The position numbers were made by a program, and so were the translations under genes. Of a stretch of 64,000 bases of DNA, positions 41,477 through 52,278 are shown piece after piece. The stretch comes from a bacterium (GTDB lineage: Bacteria; JAJVIF01). The stretch covers positions 1,178,001-1,242,000 of the forward strand of contig JAJVIF010000001.1 of assembly GCA_022072165.1 (NCBI GenBank). Direction: 5' to 3'. The stretch's first letter is position 1. Every line of letters begins with the position of its first letter. The notes under the pieces were generated by a model. It had not been told where the DNA came from, searched no databases, and saw only the letters and a list, made by a program, of their open reading frames with translations.

Positions 41477-41492
41477 AGATGCTATGAAGGCG

Positions 41493-41498
41493 AGTGTA
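41493..41498 (-). promoter_or_regulatory. -10 box TACACT upstream of the GT-C operon
   Basis: TACACT on the minus strand, 16 nt before ATG 41476. An in-frame ATA sits exactly 7 nt after the box, where other genes here have their start codon. Confidence 0.35.
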
Positions 41499-41560
41499 GC
41501 ATCCAGTTTGAATCACTCTGAATCTTCTTACGACGCACTGTCGGATGCCTCGTCTGCCGG

Positions 41561-41566
41561 TATACT
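41561..41566 (+). promoter_or_regulatory. -10 box TATACT of pilB
   Basis: CCGG-TATACTCTG, about 95 nt before GTG 41661. The pilT promoter has the same TATACTCTG string (45308-45316). Confidence 0.5.
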
Positions 41567-41660
41567 CTGCCGCTACAGTGCTGACCAGACGGTGTCGCAC
41601 TTACACCCCACCTGGGGTGCGCCAGGGCGTGACATCCAGAATCGTTCGAGGTACTACAGC

Positions 41661-43589
41661 GTGGCCGCATTAGCCAGCGGACCGGCAGCAGGCCGGCAAA
41701 AAGACAAACTCGGGATGCTGCTGATTCGGGCAGGGGTCATCACCCAGTCCCAGCTCACCGAGGCGCTGGAATACCAGAAGGGCTCCAACGAGAAGCTCGG
41801 CAAGATTCTGGTGAAGCTCGGCTTCTGCTCCAAGAACGATATCGCCAAAGCCCTCGAGGCCCAGACTGGCATCAAGTTCATCTCCCTGCTGGATTACCAG
41901 ATGCCCAAAGCGCTGGAAGCCATCATCCCGCCGGATGTGATGAACAAGAACATGGTCCTCCCCATCAAGCACGAGGGGTCGGTCCTCCATGTGGCGATGG
42001 CGGATCCCCTCGACTTCGTGGTGAAGGAAAATCTGCGACTGGCCACGGGCCTGCGGATCGAGCCGATGCTCGCCCATGAAGATGAAATCCGCGAAGTGCT
42101 GTTCCAGAAGGTCGGGAAGAAGTACGCCACCGATGAGCTGATCGGCGAATACCTGAAAACGATGGACGACGATGAGGAAGTCGTCGACCTCAACAAGGCC
42201 CTCGCGGTCGAGGGGATGGAAGCCATCGATGCCGGACCGGTGGTCCGGCTGGTGAATACGATCCTGTCGGAAGCGGTGGAGTCCCGCGCCTCCGACATCC
42301 ACATCGAGCCGATGGAAGACGAGACCATCGTGCGGTACCGCATCGATGGCGTGCTGCACAAGATTCTGTCGATTCCGCCCAAGATCCAGAACCCGACAGT
42401 CTCCCGCCTCAAGATCCTTTCCCAGCTCGACATCGCCGAGCGCCGCAAGCCGCAGGACGGCCGTATGCAGTCGAAGATCGGCGGCAAGGAACTCGACTTC
42501 CGCGTCTCCTGCCTCCCCACAGTAAACGGCGAAAAAATCGTCATGCGCATTCTCGACAAGGGCAACGCCATGGTGGGCCTGGAGCGGCTGGGCCTGGAGA
42601 AATTCGAGGAAGAGTTTCTCCTGGAAATGGCGCATCGCCCCTGGGGGATCTTCCTCGTCACCGGCCCAACCGGTTCGGGCAAATCCACCACCCTGTATTC
42701 CCTGCTGCATCACCTGAACTCGTCGGAGCGGAACATCTGCACCATCGAGGACCCGGTGGAATACACCCTCAAGGGGATCAACCAGGTCGAGGTGAACCGC
42801 AAGGCGCATCTTGACTTCGCCGCCGCGATCCGCTCCTTCCTCCGGCAGGACCCCGACATCATCCTGGTGGGGGAAATCCGCGACTACGAAACGCTGGAAA
42901 GCGCGGTCGAGTGCTCCCTGACCGGTCACATGGTCTTCAGCACGCTGCACACCAACGACGCCCCCTCGACCGTCGTCCGCATGGTCCAGATGGGCGCGCC
43001 GAACTACCTCGTGGCCGCCTCCACCATCGGCATTCACTCCCAGCGTCTGGTCCGCACTATCTGCCAGACCTGTATCGAGCCGATTCCCTACGACGAGAAC
43101 ATGCGGATGCTGGTCCGCGACATGTTCCCGCACATGGGCGACGATTTTAATCCGCGCCTGTTCAAGGGTCGGGGCTGCACGATTTGCCGCGGCACCGGCT
43201 TCAAGGGACGCACCGGCATCTTCGAGATGATGGGCATCTCCCCCATCATCCGGCAGTACATCCTCCAGGATCAGCCCACGGATGAAGTCCGACGGCAGGC
43301 GATCAAGGAAGGGATGCGGACGCTGGAGAAGTCGGCCCTCGCCAAGGTGCTTAACGGCATCACTACCATCGAAGAGGCCTCCCGCATCACCACCCTGCGC
43401 AAGGAAGAGGCGGGTCAGCAGGCAGAGCACGAGGTCGGGGTCCCCGAGCCGGCGTTCTACAGCACCGCCCTCGACGAGCCTGCGGTGGCCGGCGGCTTCC
43501 TGGAGGAGACCCGGCAGTCGGAGCTCGAAGAGTTCCCGGATCACTTCCTGGACGACATCCCGATGGAGCGGGTCGAAGGGCTGCTGTAG
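41661..43589 (+). CDS. pilB: Type IV pilus assembly ATPase PilB
   Basis: A 642-residue extension ATPase. The N-terminal MshEN/GspE-N domain begins KDKLGMLLIRAGVITQSQLTEALEYQKG. The ATPase core has Walker A GPTGSGKST (about 335-343), the Asp box TIEDPVEY, Walker B ILVGEIRD (about 402), and His box TGHMVFSTLHTNDAPSTVVRM. The PilB/GspE zinc module has CQTC and CTIC pairs (about 466-508). A non-conserved acidic tail of 60 residues follows. GTG 41661 has CGAGG 9 nt upstream; the longer open frame from 41484 covers the promoter. It drives pilus extension with PilC. A terminator follows, so it is separate from pilT. Confidence 0.95.
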   Translation: MAALASGPAAGRQKDKLGMLLIRAGVITQSQLTEALEYQKGSNEKLGKILVKLGFCSKNDIAKALEAQTGIKFISLLDYQMPKALEAIIPPDVMNKNMVLPIKHEGSVLHVAMADPLDFVVKENLRLATGLRIEPMLAHEDEIREVLFQKVGKKYATDELIGEYLKTMDDDEEVVDLNKALAVEGMEAIDAGPVVRLVNTILSEAVESRASDIHIEPMEDETIVRYRIDGVLHKILSIPPKIQNPTVSRLKILSQLDIAERRKPQDGRMQSKIGGKELDFRVSCLPTVNGEKIVMRILDKGNAMVGLERLGLEKFEEEFLLEMAHRPWGIFLVTGPTGSGKSTTLYSLLHHLNSSERNICTIEDPVEYTLKGINQVEVNRKAHLDFAAAIRSFLRQDPDIILVGEIRDYETLESAVECSLTGHMVFSTLHTNDAPSTVVRMVQMGAPNYLVAASTIGIHSQRLVRTICQTCIEPIPYDENMRMLVRDMFPHMGDDFNPRLFKGRGCTICRGTGFKGRTGIFEMMGISPIIRQYILQDQPTDEVRRQAIKEGMRTLEKSALAKVLNGITTIEEASRITTLRKEEAGQQAEHEVGVPEPAFYSTALDEPAVAGGFLEETRQSELEEFPDHFLDDIPMERVEGLL

Positions 43590-43657: not shown

Positions 43658-43684
43658 CCCCGGACCTCCCAGGTCCGGGGGTTT
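43658..43684 (+). terminator. Terminator after pilB
   Basis: CCCCGGACCT (43658-43667) pairs with AGGTCCGGGG (43671-43680), loop CCC, followed by GTTTCG. Confidence 0.85.
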
Positions 43685-43717: not shown

Positions 43718-44650
43718 TTACCGCATTGCCTTAAGTGATGGGCGAAGCGCTGTCGCGAAACGGGCAAAGCAATCGAGGAGGGCATCATGGATCTCAGGCC
43801 ATTGCTCTTCCGGGGTACTCAATCCCCCCAGCCTTGGAGATACCTTGATTTCACACGCGCGGGAAGCGTCCTTGCGATCCCAAATCAATGGCCCGCCGAA
43901 GAGCGCTTCGATCTGCTCACGCTGAGCCTCAAACCGCTCATATCGGGACAGCGCCATTTCATGTGAGTCCCCATCGATGTACAAGAAGACCAGTGCATCG
44001 TCGAGATTGCATCGGAATCCCCAGGAGATACCCGGTACCCCCGCAGAAGTTGAGATGTACCCGGCGTTTGCAGAGCGGCCGGCAAGCCAGTCCAACCGCC
44101 CGCGGGTCCGATCCTTCAGCGCTTCCCAAAAGCGACGCCGCAATTCATGTCGTTCGTTGTCCAGCGTCTCCTTGGCCTGGCCTACAGCCTTCGCCTGCGC
44201 CGACGGGCCAACGATTAGTGTCAGCAAGGGAGCGGGAGCAGAGTCACCGATCCGGACGGTTTCCAGTTTGAGCAGATAGAAGTCACCCAGCCCTGATTCG
44301 TTCAGCCAGTGCATGGCTTTCACATGCTCCGGCCGGGCCTGAGGAGTGATCCAGATTGCAATCCGGGCATCGAACGCCGCGAGGTAGGTCAGAACCTGCC
44401 CCAGATGCGTGTGATTACTCGGTGCGGTTTGATTTTCAATGACCACGGTCTGACCATCTTCATCAGAGGCGATGATATCCACCCAGAAATACTCAGCTCG
44501 CCGTTCAGTTTGAAGCACGGTCAGTCGTAACCCGCAAGCATCTTCAATGACATCAATGTGCTCGGCAAGCCAGGGGGTAAACACTTTTGCTTCGTCAGGA
44601 AAGACCTCAGTTACTGGTATGCGTGAGATCCGGCTGATTTGGTCGATCAT
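43718..44650 (-). CDS. DUF4268 protein with PD-(D/E)XK-like N-terminal half
   Basis: A 310-residue cytosolic protein. The N-terminal half carries a nuclease-like pattern: EYFWVDIIASDEDGQTVVIENQTAPSNHTHLGQVLTYLAAFDARIAIWIT, with D in WVDII and E-x-Q in VIENQ standing where PD-(D/E)XK enzymes have their metal ligands. The C-terminal half (RFWEALKDRTRGRLDWLAG, WGFRCNLDDALVFLYIDGD, RYERFEAQREQIEALFGGPLIWDRK) matches DUF4268. Such genes are scattered accessory genes, often near defence or mobile DNA. ATG 44650 has AGGAG 9 nt upstream and a TAGAAT box (44686-44691), so it has its own promoter. It interrupts the pilB-pilT neighbourhood in the opposite direction. Confidence 0.75.
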   Translation of the reverse strand: MIDQISRISRIPVTEVFPDEAKVFTPWLAEHIDVIEDACGLRLTVLQTERRAEYFWVDIIASDEDGQTVVIENQTAPSNHTHLGQVLTYLAAFDARIAIWITPQARPEHVKAMHWLNESGLGDFYLLKLETVRIGDSAPAPLLTLIVGPSAQAKAVGQAKETLDNERHELRRRFWEALKDRTRGRLDWLAGRSANAGYISTSAGVPGISWGFRCNLDDALVFLYIDGDSHEMALSRYERFEAQREQIEALFGGPLIWDRKDASRACEIKVSPRLGGLSTPEEQWPEIHDALLDCFARFATALRPSLKAMR

Positions 44651-44768: not shown

Positions 44769-44962
44769 GCGCCCCGGAGGCCTTCCGGGGCGCAGAGGTT
44801 CGACTGGGTCGGCCCGCGGTGGGCCTGCTCCGGTCGCTCGCAGCGCGATCCGCGAGGACACATCCTTGGCGCCCTGTATGGATCCGATATCGCTTTGGTG
44901 ACGAGCCCCGAGGCGTCACAAGTCCGGGACGCGCCCCTTGCGGAGGGCACGTCCCGGCTTGT
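44769..44962. other. Cluster of strong hairpins, no protein gene; candidate structured RNA
   Basis: Four or five consecutive inverted repeats: GCGCCCCGGA/TCCGGGGCGC (44769-44778 with 44784-44793); GACTGG/CCGGTC enclosing GGCCC/GGGCC (44803-44835); CTCGC/GCGAG (44837-44856); GTGACG/CGTCAC (44898-44919); and a 17-bp hairpin with one bulge and one mismatch (44918-44962). Plus-strand TTTC follows the last. The last two hairpins overlap and exclude each other. Small open frames here have no ribosome sites or coding character. I tested tmRNA, RNase P, SRP and 6S RNA by their conserved strings and found no match. Confidence 0.45.
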
Positions 44963-44964
44963 TT

Positions 44965-45081
44965 CTACGACGACTCGCTGACTTGAAGCTGGGGGAGGTT
45001 CCGGGCACCAGGCACAACAAAACCGCCGTCCCGATGGGACTCGGCGGTGATGCCACAGATGTGACTGCTCCCTGCGAGCAT
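44965..45081 (-). CDS. Possible 38-residue leader peptide after the riboswitch
   Basis: ATG 45081 sits 6 nt after a strong GGGAGG at the 3' end of the c-di-AMP aptamer. It opens a 38-codon frame (MLAGSSHICGITAESHRDGG..., ending in SESS) that runs through the terminator hairpin to TAG at 44965-44967. The protein resembles nothing I know. The ribosome site is better than that of many genes here, so translation is plausible, perhaps as a regulatory leader peptide. It could equally be what remains of a lost target gene. Confidence 0.3.
   Translation of the reverse strand: MLAGSSHICGITAESHRDGGFVVPGARNLPQLQVSESS
45018..45048 (-). terminator. Terminator downstream of the c-di-AMP riboswitch
   Basis: On the minus strand ACCGCC-GA-GTCCC pairs with GGGAC-GGCGGT (45022-45048), leaving a 2-nt bulge and 3-nt loop, and is followed by TTTTGTTG. 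It lies about 40 nt after the aptamer, the usual place of a riboswitch expression platform. Confidence 0.8.
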
Positions 45082-45090
45082 GATGACCTC

Positions 45091-45215
45091 CCTGGTGCCT
45101 GCGAGGTTAGCTGACGGGCTGGAGGAGGAAGGTCCTCTGGCATCCGATGCGGACGCCTGCGCCCCGAAAGTTGGGTCCCCCGCTGCCTGCCGTGGGCGGC
45201 AAGCATTCGGCTATG
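45091..45215 (-). promoter_or_regulatory. c-di-AMP riboswitch (ydaO/yuaA type)
   Basis: The minus-strand RNA carries the conserved strings of this class in order: GCCGAAU (45205-45211), GGGGACCC (45173-45180) followed by a CGGGG element, and CCCGUCAGCUAACCUCG (45102-45118) followed by GCAGGC that closes helix P1. These match my recollection of ydaO aptamers from Bacillus and Thermoanaerobacter. It is preceded by a TATAGT promoter box and followed by a terminator, so it looks functional. Known targets (cell-wall hydrolases, potassium or osmolyte transporters) are absent. The next annotated minus-strand gene is DUF4268, 440 nt away, with its own promoter. Confidence 0.85.
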
Positions 45216-45222
45216 TGCGCTG

Positions 45223-45228
45223 ACTATA
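45223..45228 (-). promoter_or_regulatory. -10 box TATAGT of the riboswitch transcript
   Basis: TATAGT on the minus strand would start transcription near 45216, just at the 5' edge of the aptamer. Confidence 0.6.
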
Positions 45229-45307
45229 CCACAAGACGTTGACTGTCCTTGGGTGGTTCAGACTGACCCGAACCCGCCGGTAACTTTTCGCTGACACTCC
45301 CCGACCT

Positions 45308-45313
45308 TATACT
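45308..45313 (+). promoter_or_regulatory. -10 box TATACT of pilT
   Basis: TATACTCTG string shared with the pilB promoter, about 110 nt before ATG 45422. Confidence 0.5.
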
Positions 45314-45421: not shown

Positions 45422-46549
45422 ATGTCGACCATGTCCGCCCGGGGTGAGGACCTCAACGCCGGGAAAAAAAAAGTCTTCATCGATGACCTGCTGCTCTATA
45501 CGGTCAAGGCCAAAGCCTCCGACCTCCACGTCACCGTTGGCATCCCCCCCTGTGTCCGGGTCCATGGCGAACTGAAGCCAATCCCGGGACTCCCCAGCCT
45601 CGCCAAAGAAGACACCCACGTCATGATGACCTCCCTCATGACGGAGAAGCAGATCAATCAGTTTGAGCGGGAACGGGAAATCGACTTCGCCTTCGAGATC
45701 AAGGGCCAGGGGCGCTTCCGCTGCAACGGGTATTACCAGAAGGGGAACATGGGGGGTGTCATCCGGGTCGTCCCGAACACCATCCCCACCACCGAGCAGT
45801 TGCAGCTGCCCAAAATCTGCGAGGAAGTCGCCCGCTACAAGCGGGGCCTGGTCCTCTTCACCGGCCCCACCGGGTCCGGGAAAAGCTCCTCCCTGGCCGC
45901 CCTGATCAACATCGTCAACTCTGAGCGACGCTGCCACATCATGACGATCGAGGACCCGATCGAGTTTGTCCATTCGCACAAGCAGGCGGTCGTCAATCAG
46001 CGCGAACTCGGCGATGACACCTACTCCTACGCGAAAGCGCTGAAGCATGTTCTGCGTCAGGACCCCGATGTCATCCTCGTGGGCGAGATGCGCGACCTGG
46101 AGACCATCCAGCTGGCCATCACGGCAGCGGAAACGGGCCACCTTGTGTTCAGCACCCTGCACACCATCGATGCGCCGCAGTCCATCGACCGCATGATCGA
46201 CGTCTTTCCGCCGTATCAGCAGGAACAGATCCGCCTGATGCTCTCCAACGCGCTGAAAGCGATTTTCTCCCAGCACCTGTTGCGTCGCGCCGATGGTGCC
46301 GGGCGGGTGCCCGGTGTCGAAGTGATGCTCAACAACTCCGCAGTCTCCAACATCATCCGCGAGGGGAAGGTCCATCAGCTCTACTCGGTGATGCAGACCT
46401 CCGCGAAGTTCGGGATGCAGACGATGGACACGTCGATCAAGGAGTGGCTCCAGAAGGGTGTCATCAGCCGGGAAGAAGCCCTGGCGAACTGCCACAATCT
46501 GATGGAGTTCCAGCAGCTTCTCGCTGGCAAGAACCCCTACGAGGGGTAA
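45422..46549 (+). CDS. pilT: Type IV pilus retraction ATPase PilT
   Basis: A 375-residue PilT. The PAS-like N-terminal domain (IDDLLLYTVKAKASDLHVTVGIPPCVRVHGEL) precedes Walker A GPTGSGKSSS (about 148-157), Asp box TIEDPIEFVH, Walker B ILVGEMRDLET and His box GHLVFSTLHTIDAP. The PilT-specific C-terminal motif is present as NNSAVSNIIREGKVHQL (family AIRNLIREGK). No zinc module is present, as expected for PilT. ATG 45422 has AAGGAG 9 nt upstream; the frame opens earlier at 45353. PilT depolymerises the pilus for twitching. It is followed by the metal-uptake insertion, with pilC 6 kb later. Confidence 0.95.
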   Translation: MSTMSARGEDLNAGKKKVFIDDLLLYTVKAKASDLHVTVGIPPCVRVHGELKPIPGLPSLAKEDTHVMMTSLMTEKQINQFEREREIDFAFEIKGQGRFRCNGYYQKGNMGGVIRVVPNTIPTTEQLQLPKICEEVARYKRGLVLFTGPTGSGKSSSLAALINIVNSERRCHIMTIEDPIEFVHSHKQAVVNQRELGDDTYSYAKALKHVLRQDPDVILVGEMRDLETIQLAITAAETGHLVFSTLHTIDAPQSIDRMIDVFPPYQQEQIRLMLSNALKAIFSQHLLRRADGAGRVPGVEVMLNNSAVSNIIREGKVHQLYSVMQTSAKFGMQTMDTSIKEWLQKGVISREEALANCHNLMEFQQLLAGKNPYEG

Positions 46550-47373: not shown

Positions 47374-48528
47374 ATGTCTCTGTCACGCCCATCGGCGCGA
47401 TGGCTGGCGCTTGGTGTCGCCTGCCTGCTGCCGACGATGCCGGTCTTCGCCGAAGCATCCACCGATCCTGATGTCCCAGATGCCCTGGAAGCACGCATCG
47501 ACGCCCTTGAGGCGGAACTGCAGCAATTGCGCGCCGAACTGGAAGCGCTCCGGCAGCCCGCCCCGGCAGTGACACCTACCTCGTCAGCGTCGCGACAAAA
47601 TGCGTTCAACCCCGACATTGGCGTCAACGCCCTGAGCACGCTCATCTTCGACTCCGGCGAGTTGAGCGATGCCCGCTTCGACTTCAACGAGCTGGAGTTG
47701 AGTGTGAGCGGTGTCGTGGATCCCTTTGCCTCCTACTACGCCAGCCTGGTCTTTCTGGGTGAGGAAGTGGAAGTGGAGGAAGCGTATGCCACGCTGACGA
47801 ACTTCCCCGCTGACCTCACGACCACGGTCGGGCGACGGCTGATCCCGGTGGGCCTCTGGAATCCCACGCACCGCCATGCCTGGCCCCTGAACAACGCGCC
47901 ACTGGTGATCGAGAACTTCCTCGGCTCGCCCCATCTGCTGGGGACGGGTGTCACCACCGAATACACCTGGGGTGGCTCGACCGCCTGGACTGCATCAGCG
48001 GGTGCCTATACCGAGCTGGAAGGCTCGCAGTTTGTCGAGCAGGGACTCGAACATCCCCTCCTCACCGCTCGAGTCCAGGCCTTCGTAGAGCAGCCGGAGG
48101 GTGGGCTCCAGTTCGGGATCAATGCCCTGCATGGTCCGGTGAATGATGAAGGCACCCTGGGGTCCACGCTCATCGGACTCGATGCCAAATGGCGCACCGG
48201 CAACTAGGCGGACCTCAACCGCTGGCTGGTCCAGGGCGAGTGGTGGCTGAACGATCGCGATGGCCTGCTCTCGGACTTCTCTGCTACCGGGGCGTACCTC
48301 CTCGCCGAGCGCGATGTCGCGCGGGACTGGACTCTGGGGGGACGCCTGGAGTTTGCCGAAGACACGTTCGGCGACCAGTCCCAGGATCGCTGGTCGCTCT
48401 ATGCCAACTGGCAGCGCTCCGAGTTTCAGCGCTGGCGTCTGCAGTTTGACCAGACCGATGGTCACGATGAGCAGGTGTCGCTGCAGGCATTGTTCACCCT
48501 GGGCCCCCATCCCGCCCACCCGTTTTAA
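47374..48528 (+). pseudogene. Porin-like outer-membrane protein interrupted by an in-frame amber codon
   Basis: ATG 47374 (AAGGAG upstream) opens a porin-like protein: signal peptide to VFAEA, a coiled coil (ALEARIDALEAELQQLRAELEALRQ), then alternating strands rich in aromatic residues (RFDFNELELSVSG, VGRRLIPVGLWNPTHRHAWPL). TAG at 48205-48207 ends it at 277 residues. The same frame continues without other stops through ADLNRWLVQGEWWLND and further strands to TAA 48526-48528, ending in a typical outer-membrane terminal strand region. One CAG-to-TAG change would explain it. Either a recent pseudogene, suppressed amber, or a sequence error. Likely role: outer-membrane entry of metal or metallophore. 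Confidence 0.75.
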
Positions 48529-48548
48529 GGAAGAAAGGAGAAACGCAG

Positions 48549-49490
48549 ATGCTACGAATACGACAGAACACAGCGGTCTGGCCTCTTCGGCTCCTGTTGA
48601 GCGCGGTGCTGGCATTGCTGACATCGCCGGCGTATGCGGCGCTACAGGTCGTAACTACCACGACTGATCTCGCATACTTCGCCGCCACCATCGGCGGTGA
48701 CCGGGTCACGACAGAAGCCCTGGCGCGTCCGCAGGAAGACCTCCACGCCGTGCAGGTCAAGCCGAGCTTTCTCGCCCGGATCAACAAAGCTGATCTGTTT
48801 GTCCAGGTCGGCCTCGATCTGGAAACCTGGGTGCCGCCGTTGCTTGCTAAGACGAGCCGGGCTTCGCTCCGTCCGGGGGGCGACGGCTACGTTCTGGCCA
48901 GCGCAAACACGACACTGCTTGAAGTTCCCTGCTGTGAAGTGGATCGTTCTATGGGCGACATTCATGCTCAGGGGAATCCCCACTGCTGGCTGGAGAGTGG
49001 AAACGCCAAGGTCATGGCGGCCGACATCCGCGATGGTCTGGTGCGGATCGATCCCACCGGCCGCGCCACCTACGACGCGAACTATCAGGCCCTCGCGCAA
49101 CGCATTGATCAGGCAAGCGCTGAAGCCAAACGCATCCTGCAGCCCTATGCCGGTGCACTGGTTGTCCAGCACCACTCCTCCTTTGTCTATCTGTTCCAGA
49201 TGCTGGGCGTCACGGCTGCTGCTTCATTGGAACCACGGCCTGGGATCGCCCCTGGAGCGGGGCATCTTGCAGCACTGAAAACACAGATGGCGAAGGAACA
49301 GATTCGGGTCATCACCACCGAGGCGAGCCTCAATCAGAAATCGTCCCGCAGCCTCGCGACCAGTACGGGAGCCTCGCTGGTCACGCTGGGTCAGCATGTC
49401 GGGAGTCTCCCGGACACACCGTCATGGGAAGCCCTGATTCTTGCCAATGCCCGTCGCCTCGCCGAGGGCCTGAAAGGAGATGCACGATGA
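48549..49490 (+). CDS. Metal ABC transporter substrate-binding protein (ZnuA/MntC class)
   Basis: A 313-residue periplasmic cluster A-I binding protein. Signal peptide (LRLLLSAVLALLTSPAYAA), then VVTTTTDLAYFAATIGGDRV. The three metal ligand sites are recognisable: H in EDLHAVQVKPS, H in GNPHCWLES, and the C-lobe H in VVQHHSSFVYLFQMLG with the acidic ligand in ITTEASLNQKSSRSLA. No His-rich loop is inserted between the first two sites, unlike typical zinc-specific ZnuA, so Zn or Mn cannot be chosen. Its stop overlaps the His-rich lipoprotein start (ATGA). Confidence 0.9.
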   Translation: MLRIRQNTAVWPLRLLLSAVLALLTSPAYAALQVVTTTTDLAYFAATIGGDRVTTEALARPQEDLHAVQVKPSFLARINKADLFVQVGLDLETWVPPLLAKTSRASLRPGGDGYVLASANTTLLEVPCCEVDRSMGDIHAQGNPHCWLESGNAKVMAADIRDGLVRIDPTGRATYDANYQALAQRIDQASAEAKRILQPYAGALVVQHHSSFVYLFQMLGVTAAASLEPRPGIAPGAGHLAALKTQMAKEQIRVITTEASLNQKSSRSLATSTGASLVTLGQHVGSLPDTPSWEALILANARRLAEGLKGDAR

Positions 49491-50173
49491 GCCGACTTGT
49501 CTGGCCACTGGCCGGTATGCTGCTACTCGCACTTGGTTCGCTGGGCTGTGTTGATGGCGGTGAAGTTTCCATGCCATCGGACGCGGAGATGACTCAGATC
49601 ACTGGTCGACTCCTGCTGGGTGGCGAGCACGACCACACCGCTGCCAGCGAGGATGACGACGATGATCACGATCACGACGACGACCATGACGAAGACGATG
49701 ATCACGATCATGAGAACGCAGAGGGCGAGCCGCTGGCCGACTTCCCGGTCACCCTCATTGTGGGGGCGGCTGGCCGCGCCGGAGTGGCGACTTCCAATGC
49801 CGCAGGTCGCTTCGGCTTCGAAGTCCCCGCAGGGACCTATCACCTCGGGTTCCGGCTCCCGGCCAATCTCGGAGAGGGTGGCAGCCCGGAGACGCACTGG
49901 CTCCTGCGGGTCGAAGCCTCCGATGAGCCGGTCGGCCTGGAGATCATCATCACGCCCGAAACGGACGAAGCACACTGGCACATCACCGGACTGATCTTCG
50001 ATGACGAAGACGGCGATGGGCTCCGGGGTGACGAGGAAGCCGTGCTGGAGACGCTCGATGCCGAAGTCCCCTTCGGCTCACGCCGGGACCTGGTCATAAA
50101 TCCTGCAGACGATGAGTCTGCGGATGATGATGACGACGGGCATGGGCATGGGCATGGGCATTCCCACGGCTAG
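49487..50173 (+). CDS. His/Asp-rich lipoprotein with a carboxypeptidase-regulatory-like domain
   Basis: A 228-residue lipoprotein (lipobox SLGC). An acidic His-rich block at residues 45-80 (SEDDDDDHDHDDDHDEDDDH) and a C-terminal tail GHGHGHGHSHG can bind many divalent ions. Between them is a beta-sandwich of the prealbumin-like type: FPVTLIVGAAGRAGVATSNAAGRFGFEVPAGTYHLGF. The block DEDGDGLRGDEEA resembles an EF-hand-like Ca loop. It starts in the SBP stop (ATGA). Coupled position suggests it collects metal for the binding protein. The tail is encoded by GGGCAT repeats that also cover possible starts of the next gene. Confidence 0.8.
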   Translation: MSRLVWPLAGMLLLALGSLGCVDGGEVSMPSDAEMTQITGRLLLGGEHDHTAASEDDDDDHDHDDDHDEDDDHDHENAEGEPLADFPVTLIVGAAGRAGVATSNAAGRFGFEVPAGTYHLGFRLPANLGEGGSPETHWLLRVEASDEPVGLEIIITPETDEAHWHITGLIFDDEDGDGLRGDEEAVLETLDAEVPFGSRRDLVINPADDESADDDDDGHGHGHGHSHG

Positions 50174-50183
50174 TCCAGGCGCA

Positions 50184-50828
50184 GTGAAAGCTGCATTGGT
50201 TGCAGAGAGTGTCCCTGTCGCCTTCCTGGTGGAGGCGGCAGGGACCGTCTGCGGCTACGGACGTCGTGTGGTCACTGCCCCTATGAACTTCACACTGGCT
50301 CTTGGTGGACGCCTTGTGATTGTCGGCCCCAACGGCGCCGGGAAGTCGACACTCCTGCGAGCGCTGCTGGGGCAGGCGGACATCCTCGCCGGGTCCCTCC
50401 TGCTGCGCCCCGGACTCAGAGTCGCCCTCGTGCCGCAGATGGAGCCTCCGAATCCTGCCCTCCCCACGACACTGGGTGAAGCCCTGCGGATTGCGGCGAC
50501 CAATCCGGTTTCACAGGCGATGCTGCCGCAGGTGACTCAACAACTCGGCCTCGATGCATGGCTGAGCGTGCAGCTGCGTCATGCTTCGGGGGGACAGCGG
50601 CAGCGACTCTGGCTCGCCCGGGCGCTCATGCAGCAACCAGACCTGCTCCTGCTGGATGAGCCAACCTCCGGCCTGGATGCCGCCGCCCGTGAGGAGCTCG
50701 TGCAGGCGCTCCTGGCGCTCCCCCGCACCGTCGGAGTCCTCCTGGTGACGCATGACCCGACCTTGCCGCAACTGCTCGGGGCAGAGACATTGACCCTTGT
50801 TCCCGCGCTTCCGGAGCACCAGGCATGA
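50184..50828 (+). CDS. Metal ABC transporter ATPase (ZnuC/MntB class)
   Basis: About 214 residues. Walker A GPNGAGKSTLL, Q-loop LVPQMEPP, signature ASGGQRQRLWLARAL, Walker B LLLLDEPTSGLD and switch LVTHDPT are all intact. Shorter than the usual 250. The start is uncertain: GTG 50184 just after the previous gene is my choice, while in-frame ATGs (50112-50151) lie inside the His-tail coding repeats. The stop overlaps the permease start by 4 nt. Confidence 0.88.
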   Translation: MKAALVAESVPVAFLVEAAGTVCGYGRRVVTAPMNFTLALGGRLVIVGPNGAGKSTLLRALLGQADILAGSLLLRPGLRVALVPQMEPPNPALPTTLGEALRIAATNPVSQAMLPQVTQQLGLDAWLSVQLRHASGGQRQRLWLARALMQQPDLLLLDEPTSGLDAAAREELVQALLALPRTVGVLLVTHDPTLPQLLGAETLTLVPALPEHQA

Positions 50829-51634
50829 CATCGCTGCAGCTGTTGCTGGATCCGGGCTACCGGCTCCCACTGCTACTGGGTGGGGTGGTCGTGGTGGCCT
50901 TGAGTCAACTGGCGATTCTGTTAGTAGGGTCCCGCCTTCTGCTGACGGGGATCGCCCTGGCGCAGGCTGGGAGTGTGGGAGCTGCCTGCGGTCTCTTTAT
51001 CCCTCTCCCTCCCACTTTCCTGGCGATGAGCAGTACGACCCTGGCTGCGGGATTCGTCGCCGTACTTCGACAGACCGAAACCGCTGCTGAAACCGGACTC
51101 CTGCTGCTCTATCTCGGCTGTGGTGTGGTGGCACAACTCCTGGCCGCGATGTCCGGGTCTGGAGACAGCCAGACACTCGAGCTGCTGAATGGGCAGCTCC
51201 TGCTGGCCACCGGAACCGATGTCCTCCTTGTACTTCTCGCGCTGCTCCTCTTAGGCGGGAGCCTCTGGCCAGTACGGCAGGGGCTCCTGCTCCTGCTGAC
51301 GCAGCCCGATTTTGCTCATGCCAGCGGCCTGCCGGTGCGGTCACTGGAGCTCCGGATGCTGCTGGCCATCGGATTGGTGACCGGCGCTGCGTTTTCGGTG
51401 CTGGGGGTGCTCTGCACCACCGCAGCTCTCACCTGTCCCGGCCTGATCGCCCTCCGGCTGGCCCCTTCACTTCGTCAGTCGCCAGGGATCGCTGCACTGG
51501 CGGGACTGGTGGCTTATCTGCTGGGCGTGATCCTGGCGTTTGGGCTGGACTGGCCCACCGGACCTGCCATCGGCGGTGCGCTGGTCCTGCTCACCCTCGG
51601 GGCCTTTGGCGGCAGCTTCATCCGACGTCCCTGA
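50825..51634 (+). CDS. Metal ABC transporter permease (ZnuB/MntC class)
   Basis: A 269-residue permease of the ABC-3 family (cluster 9) with about eight helices. LVGSRLLLTGIALAQAGSVGAACGLFI matches the conserved second-helix region (family GxALxHAxLPG), and LGVLCTTAALTCPGLIALRLAPS matches the C-terminal family motif (variant of LVSALLVIPAATA). Start ATG 50825 overlaps the ATPase stop. With the two preceding genes it completes a Zn/Mn importer. Confidence 0.9.
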   Translation: MTSLQLLLDPGYRLPLLLGGVVVVALSQLAILLVGSRLLLTGIALAQAGSVGAACGLFIPLPPTFLAMSSTTLAAGFVAVLRQTETAAETGLLLLYLGCGVVAQLLAAMSGSGDSQTLELLNGQLLLATGTDVLLVLLALLLLGGSLWPVRQGLLLLLTQPDFAHASGLPVRSLELRMLLAIGLVTGAAFSVLGVLCTTAALTCPGLIALRLAPSLRQSPGIAALAGLVAYLLGVILAFGLDWPTGPAIGGALVLLTLGAFGGSFIRRP

Positions 51635-51638
51635 CAGG

Positions 51639-51644
51639 TACACT
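51639..51644 (+). promoter_or_regulatory. -10 box TACACT, leaderless start of the DUF3299 gene
   Basis: CAGG-TACACT, 7 nt, then GTG 51652. Suggests that this last gene of the island has its own leaderless promoter. Confidence 0.55.
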
Positions 51645-51651
51645 GCTTCCT

Positions 51652-52278
51652 GTGATCGCACGCCCCACCAGTTCTGGTCCCTCACCCGCTGCTGTCGGCT
51701 GGCCCTTTCTGCGGCTGACCATTTTCGCCACGACCGTCGGACTCGCCCTCACCGCCATGCTGCAGGCTGGTGCTCCCTGTCAGTTTGGATTACACGATGC
51801 CACTACCTGCGATCATCCCCACCATCAGCACGCTAATCCGACAGAACCTGAACTCGTACTGCTTGATTTTGAAGACTTCAAAGCGCTTCCCTATGCAGAA
51901 GGCATGATCCCCCAGGAAATGGCCGCCCTCGCCGGGCAGACAATTGGGATTGTCGGTTACATGATGCCGATGGACAGCAACACCGAGGTCCGCCACCTGT
52001 GGCTCGTGGAGAACTCCTTCGGCTGCTGTTTCGGCGAGCCCCCGTTGCCCTGGCATTTGATCGAAGTCCGGCTGGACCCGTCCATTCCAGCCCTCCCCTT
52101 CGAGCTGGCCCCGCTGAAAATTGAAGGCCCCCTCACCGTGAAAGAGCACTATGAGGGGGACGTGCTGGTGAGTGTGTACCAAGTGGTCGCGACCCGGGCA
52201 GACCTCCTGATGGACGAGCTCACCGGTGGCGAATGCCTCGCCTGCCCTGACCGGCATCCCCGTCCAGCCGCTGAGTAA
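51652..52278 (+). CDS. DUF3299 exported protein
   Basis: A 208-residue exported protein with a hydrophobic N-terminus (LRLTIFATTVGLALTAML) and a His cluster after it (CDHPHHQHANPTEPE). The DUF3299 core reads LLDFEDFKALPYAEGMIPQEMAALAGQTIGIVGYMMPMDSNTEVRHLWLVENSFGCCFGEPPLPWHLIEVRL, with the family's conserved G-x-M-x-P and C-C/x-PPP elements. The function is not known. Its place at the end of a metal-uptake island and the His/Cys content suggest metal handling in the periplasm. CLACPDRHP near the C-terminus adds another Cys pair. Confidence 0.8.
   Translation: MIARPTSSGPSPAAVGWPFLRLTIFATTVGLALTAMLQAGAPCQFGLHDATTCDHPHHQHANPTEPELVLLDFEDFKALPYAEGMIPQEMAALAGQTIGIVGYMMPMDSNTEVRHLWLVENSFGCCFGEPPLPWHLIEVRLDPSIPALPFELAPLKIEGPLTVKEHYEGDVLVSVYQVVATRADLLMDELTGGECLACPDRHPRPAAE

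What the first reader, a model, noticed from the sequence alone, without database searches (positions are those of the whole stretch)
45018..45228. c-di-AMP riboswitch with promoter and terminator but no recognisable target, between pilB and pilT
Seen: a minus-strand ydaO-type aptamer (GCCGAAU, GGGGACCC, CCCGUCAGCUAACCUCG) starting about 8 nt after a TATAGT box, followed by a U-tailed terminator. Known: this class usually controls wall hydrolases or potassium/osmolyte transport. Here the next minus-strand gene is DUF4268, 440 nt on, with its own promoter box. Either the target is a new short gene, the terminated RNA itself is the product, or the original target was lost by insertion. Links between c-di-AMP and pilus genes would be new.
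Basis: partly seen in the sequence, partly recalled or inferred. Interest (0 to 1): 0.8.

Follow-up and report, generated by a model that had tools for sequence, protein, structure and literature searches.

The report
Orphan c-di-AMP riboswitch without recognisable target
A genuine, structurally intact RNA sensor for the bacterial signal c-di-AMP sits beside a pilus gene with its own promoter-like box and terminator but without its usual kind of target gene, most likely because that gene was lost and an unrelated candidate anti-phage gene now lies next in line.

Summary
RF00379 (c-di-AMP, ydaO/yuaA) matches 45081-45222 (-) end to end with 67.8 bits (cut-off 38), the only copy in the genome. 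The aptamer is intact: 34 of 36 highly conserved columns match, and the other two are the two sides of one compensatory G-C to A-U change. The 8-bp pseudoknot is present. A TGG-TATAGT box lies upstream and an intrinsic terminator (45048-45022) 32 nt downstream. The genome has a diadenylate cyclase in a cdaA-cdaR-glmM-like operon.

No recognisable target follows. A 38-codon ORF overlaps the terminator and has no credible relatives. The next real gene, 430 nt on, is a DUF4268 protein matching candidate defence family PDC-S11, probably horizontally acquired, and not next to c-di-AMP riboswitches in other genomes checked. A same-class relative has the switch before a KimA-like permease; this genome's own KimA-like gene has none. 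pilT diverges from its own promoter-like box, so a pilus link is unsupported.

Best reading: a known-class OFF switch orphaned by loss or replacement of its target, probably yielding a terminated RNA of about 200 nt. Control of the defence candidate, a short peptide, or a stand-alone c-di-AMP-binding RNA are not excluded.

The parts
45223..45231 (-). TGG-TATAGT, extended -10 promoter-like box of the riboswitch
   Evidence: motif located; -35 weak; not confirmed by any expression data
45081..45222 (-). c-di-AMP (ydaO/yuaA) riboswitch aptamer, RF00379
   Evidence: 67.8 bits, cut-off 38, full model; 34 of 36 highly conserved columns kept, the other two a compensatory pair
45126..45133 (-). pseudoknot 5' strand, ACCUUCCU
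   Evidence: pairs with 45086-45093 over 8 bp; pairing of this loop with the tail is found in most of the other family members compared
45086..45093 (-). pseudoknot 3' strand AGGGAGGU, which contains a Shine-Dalgarno-like GGGAGG
44965..45081 (-). 38-codon ORF, ATG 5 nt behind GGGAGG; overlaps the terminator; probably not a gene
   Evidence: no Pfam match; only chance-level matches elsewhere
45015..45048 (-). intrinsic terminator: hairpin 45048-45022 and U-rich tail
   Evidence: -17.1 kcal/mol; distance from the core is within the range of other terminator-type members
44993..45012 (-). segment behind the terminator complementary to the aptamer tail (9 nt: 45012-45004 with 45099-45091; 7 nt: 44999-44993 with 45092-45086); function unknown
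   Evidence: 0.7% of shuffles reach 9 nt
43718..44650 (-). DUF4268 gene, PADLOC candidate defence family PDC-S11; next gene downstream, not shown to be controlled
   Evidence: Pfam PF14088, PDC-S11 E 3.5e-99, GC3 0.61
45308..45313 (+). TATACT, possible -10 box of the divergent pilT
   Evidence: consensus match only

Best explanation
This is an intact c-di-AMP (ydaO/yuaA-class) riboswitch of the usual OFF type, with its own promoter-like box and intrinsic terminator, that has been orphaned. Its former target, probably a potassium-type permease as in a same-class relative, was lost, replaced or separated from it, and the strand now leads to a probably acquired DUF4268/PDC-S11 gene. Shown by sequence: aptamer, pseudoknot, terminator, and no recognisable target for 430 nt. 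Inferred: that the promoter works, that the RNA binds c-di-AMP, that most transcripts end near 45015 as an RNA of about 200 nt, and that switching now has little protein-coding consequence. When c-di-AMP is high, P1 and the pseudoknot would close, GGGAGG would be hidden and termination favoured.
For: Family match and conserved core; compensatory A-U pair 45136-45123; pseudoknot; terminator at an ordinary distance; diadenylate cyclase in an operon of the cdaA-cdaR-glmM kind. Targets elsewhere are real genes, often permeases. Same-class G001 has the switch about 205 nt before a KimA-like permease. G000's own KimA-like permease, 50% identical over 491 aa to the protein behind the switch at L138, has no RF00379 match. 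No gene remnant by Pfam in the gap.
Against: No close relative is held, so the loss event was not observed; the ancestral order is inferred from one relative of another family. An intact aptamer implies either recent loss or a remaining function. G001 and G000 switch loci have different neighbours, so the former target at this very place is unknown.
Confidence: 0.48

Rival explanations
1. Stand-alone RNA: the promoter, aptamer and terminator make a c-di-AMP-binding RNA of about 200 nt that acts by itself, for example as a sink or buffer, like merRNA for c-di-GMP in Bdellovibrio.
For: Complete transcription unit with an intact aptamer and no recognisable ORF; precedent of a riboswitch RNA without a downstream ORF (PMC3627812).
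Against: No expression data. merRNA was proposed on massive expression, which cannot be seen here. No second example in the same class to show conservation without a target.
Confidence: 0.17
2. The switch controls the DUF4268/PDC-S11 candidate defence gene by termination versus read-through over a leader of about 560 nt.
For: Same strand, next gene, no other recognised gene between; weak evidence for a separate promoter before DUF4268. Gaps of 250-320 nt occur at other members.
Against: A gap of 430 nt is among the longest seen. In three other riboswitch-bearing genomes with a homologue, the homologue is on a different contig from the riboswitch. A TAGAAT box and its own Shine-Dalgarno lie just before the gene.
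Confidence: 0.13
3. The switch controls the 38-codon ORF, by hiding its Shine-Dalgarno in the pseudoknot; translation through the terminator hairpin could in turn suppress termination (a leader-peptide relay).
For: GGGAGG in the pseudoknot strand, ATG 5 nt behind it; the same layout opens genuine genes at L002, L008, L012 and L143; translational control reported for a c-di-AMP riboswitch (PMC9960051).
Against: No relatives of the peptide beyond chance; terminator lies inside the ORF; an ATG shortly behind the pseudoknot strand also appears in terminator-type members such as L003 and L010 whose gene starts further on, so it can be chance.
Confidence: 0.1
4. The switch regulates pilus genes (pilT or pilB), for instance by antisense transcription.
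For: Adjacency only; a long read-through would run antisense into pilB.
Against: pilT has its own -10-like box between it and the switch. pilB is closed on the + strand by a terminator-like hairpin at 43658-43680. The gene order was not seen in same-class relatives.
Confidence: 0.03

Closest known systems
ydaO/yuaA (kimA) c-di-AMP riboswitch of Bacillus subtilis and relatives, RF00379
   Same: Aptamer class, conserved core, pseudoknot, terminator behind the aptamer
   Different: There a potassium importer gene follows; here no recognisable target
Corynebacterium glutamicum nlpC c-di-AMP riboswitch (PMC9960051)
   Same: Same aptamer class; Shine-Dalgarno complementary to an aptamer element, translational control proposed
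   Different: There a real gene follows and no canonical terminator is present; here a terminator and only a 38-codon ORF
merRNA of Bdellovibrio bacteriovorus (PMC3627812)
   Same: A second-messenger aptamer in an RNA without a recognised downstream ORF
   Different: merRNA carries a c-di-GMP aptamer, is about 445 nt and massively expressed; expression here is unknown

Membership tests
c-di-AMP riboswitch RF00379 | Covariance score above the curated cut-off over the full model | tested here: met
   67.8 bits against 38, positions 1-134 of 134
c-di-AMP riboswitch RF00379 | Conserved core residues and pseudoknot | tested here: met
   34 of 36 highly conserved columns, the two others a compensatory pair; 8-bp pseudoknot
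c-di-AMP riboswitch RF00379 | Organism makes c-di-AMP | tested here: met
   DAC domain E 5.6e-41; met as gene presence only
c-di-AMP riboswitch RF00379 | Binds c-di-AMP | not testable with these tools
   needs in-line probing or ITC
Cis-regulatory riboswitch with a protein-coding target | A recognisable gene directly downstream | tested here: not met
   only a 38-codon ORF before DUF4268 at 430 nt
Transcription-terminating expression platform | Intrinsic terminator behind the aptamer | tested here: met
   45048-45022, -17.1 kcal/mol, U-rich tail
Transcription-terminating expression platform | Terminator formation depends on the ligand | tested here: inconclusive
   no antiterminator found, but genuine terminator-type members fail the same folding test
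merRNA-like stand-alone second-messenger RNA | Abundant RNA without a downstream ORF | not testable with these tools
   no transcriptome available

The most novel reading that the evidence does not exclude
A c-di-AMP riboswitch has come to gate a candidate anti-phage gene (DUF4268/PDC-S11), or acts as a stand-alone terminated RNA that binds c-di-AMP, an analogue of merRNA for this messenger.
Probability: 0.27. Interest if true: 0.7.

Novelty: new member of a known kind. Interest (0 to 1): 0.33.

Why it matters
An intact second-messenger riboswitch without a recognisable target is a natural case for asking what becomes of a riboswitch once its gene is gone, and whether it is reused for a newly arrived gene or as a free RNA. 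A c-di-AMP link to phage defence, or a free c-di-AMP-binding RNA, would be new as far as the few literature searches made here show, but neither is demonstrated.

Tried and rejected
Antiterminator and ligand-state folding: uninformative, because genuine terminator-type members also fold their terminator in the free state, and at several translational-type members the Shine-Dalgarno is also paired. Homologues of the 38-aa ORF: hits at E 0.01-0.06 only, matching other reading frames of unrelated size. Pfam on stop-to-stop pieces of the gap in all six frames: nothing above E 0.15. Second copy of the region in the genome: none. Close relatives with the same locus: a PilT search of genome contigs gave nothing above 54% identity, and whole-genome search holds only three same-class genomes. 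DUF4268 in viral contigs: no relative found. A weak IRES_Bip match on the + strand (20.3 bits, cut-off 40) is taken as chance.

Full report
Observation. cmscan of the window against Rfam 15 finds RF00379 at 45081-45222 (-) with 67.8 bits (cut-off 38), over the full model. Whole-genome searches find one copy above the cut-off. The promoter-like box TGG-TATAGT lies at 45231-45223 (-), with a poor -35, and the terminator hairpin at 45048-45022 (-), -17.1 kcal/mol with a U-rich tail.

Is the aptamer intact? I aligned it with aptamers from genomes across the domain. Of 36 columns at least 90% conserved in 50 other sequences it matches 34. The two departures are A45136 and U45123, which pair with each other in a stem that is G-C at this place in most others: a compensatory change. 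The loop-tail pseudoknot is ACCUUCCU (45133-45126) with AGGGAGGU (45093-45086), 8 bp. The fold has therefore been kept. The bit score is lower than in most relatives but not an outlier.

Does the organism make c-di-AMP? A DAC domain (E 5.6e-41) lies at G000:C1:137555. The next two ORFs resemble cdaR (YbbR) and glmM, as judged by eye from their sequences, not by a family search.

What follows the aptamer? On the same strand there is a 38-codon ORF (45081-44965) whose ATG sits 5 nt behind GGGAGG, then nothing recognisable until DUF4268 at 44650. Among the 54 riboswitch places compared, a start codon 4-9 nt behind the pseudoknot strand recurs and then opens a genuine gene, for example at L002, L008, L012 and L143. 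The pseudoknot can thus hide a Shine-Dalgarno, in line with the translational control reported for C. glutamicum nlpC (PMC9960051). Here, however, the ORF has no credible relatives in 144 genomes and contains the terminator. An ATG just behind the pseudoknot strand also occurs at L003 and L010, whose genes start further on, so it can be chance.

The terminator's distance from the core (64 nt) is ordinary for terminator-type members (28-79 nt). Folding did not show a ligand-switched terminator, but the controls fail the same test, so this says nothing either way.

The next gene. The DUF4268 protein matches PADLOC PDC-S11 over its full length (E 3.5e-99) and NucS weakly. PDC families are candidates; I take no function as shown. 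Its GC3 is 0.61 against 0.83-0.84 for pilB and pilT, but other genes nearby lie at 0.67-0.76, so acquisition is suggested rather than shown. Relatives occur on 310 plasmid records. Of 43 riboswitch-bearing genomes four hold a homologue at E <= 1e-10, and in the three other than G000 it lies on a different contig from the riboswitch. There is no recurrent association.

What was the target? In same-class G001 the switch precedes an APC/KimA-like permease by about 205 nt. G000 has a 628-aa KimA-like permease on another contig, 50% identical over 491 aa to the protein behind the switch at L138, and with no RF00379 match. This fits loss of the original target or separation from it. No close relative is held, so the event itself was not observed, and the former target at this very place is unknown.

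Pilus link. pilT is divergent, probably starts at 45422, and has its own TATACT at 45308-45313. pilB is followed by a terminator-like hairpin on the + strand at 43658-43680. In G002 pilT is followed directly by pilC, and the G000 order was not seen in the same-class relatives examined. Adjacency alone is not evidence for control.

A detail left open. CCUGGUGCC at 45012-45004 is a perfect 9-nt complement of the aptamer tail 45099-45091, and ACCUCCC at 44999-44993 complements GGGAGGU; 0.7% of 5000 shuffles reach 9 nt. It would matter only in read-through transcripts. It rests on one sequence and was noticed before it was tested, so it is a lead, not a result.

Verdict. A real, intact member of a known riboswitch class, orphaned from its usual kind of target. 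Loss, replacement or separation of the target is the most likely reading. A stand-alone RNA of the merRNA kind (PMC3627812), control of DUF4268, and a short peptide remain possible.

Noticed in passing
window 43718-44650 (-): The DUF4268 gene is a full-length match to the PADLOC candidate single-gene defence family PDC-S11, with a weak NucS-like stretch; related genes are frequent on plasmids.
   Followed up: partly
window 41484-43589 (+): The PilB-like ATPase carries an MshEN domain, a family known to bind c-di-GMP, so a cyclic dinucleotide link to this pilus may exist through another messenger.
   Followed up: no
window 47374-52278 (+): A set of metal-uptake-like genes (an ABC substrate-binding protein of the ZnuA/MntC kind, ATPase and permease) lies between pilT and a pilC-like gene, which in a same-class relative follows pilT directly.
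   Followed up: no
window 44925-44956 and 44769-44793 (-): Two near-perfect GC-rich hairpins (-26.8 and -22.0 kcal/mol) without U tails lie in the gap before DUF4268; no second copy in the genome.
   Followed up: partly
L149 (riboswitch of genome G356): Another RF00379 riboswitch whose first long ORF starts about 500 nt downstream; a possible second orphan.
   Followed up: no
L002, L008, L009, L012, L143, L177: At many members outside Firmicutes-type loci the start codon follows the pseudoknot strand by 4-9 nt, suggesting that Shine-Dalgarno hiding by the pseudoknot is a common layout of this class.
   Followed up: partly
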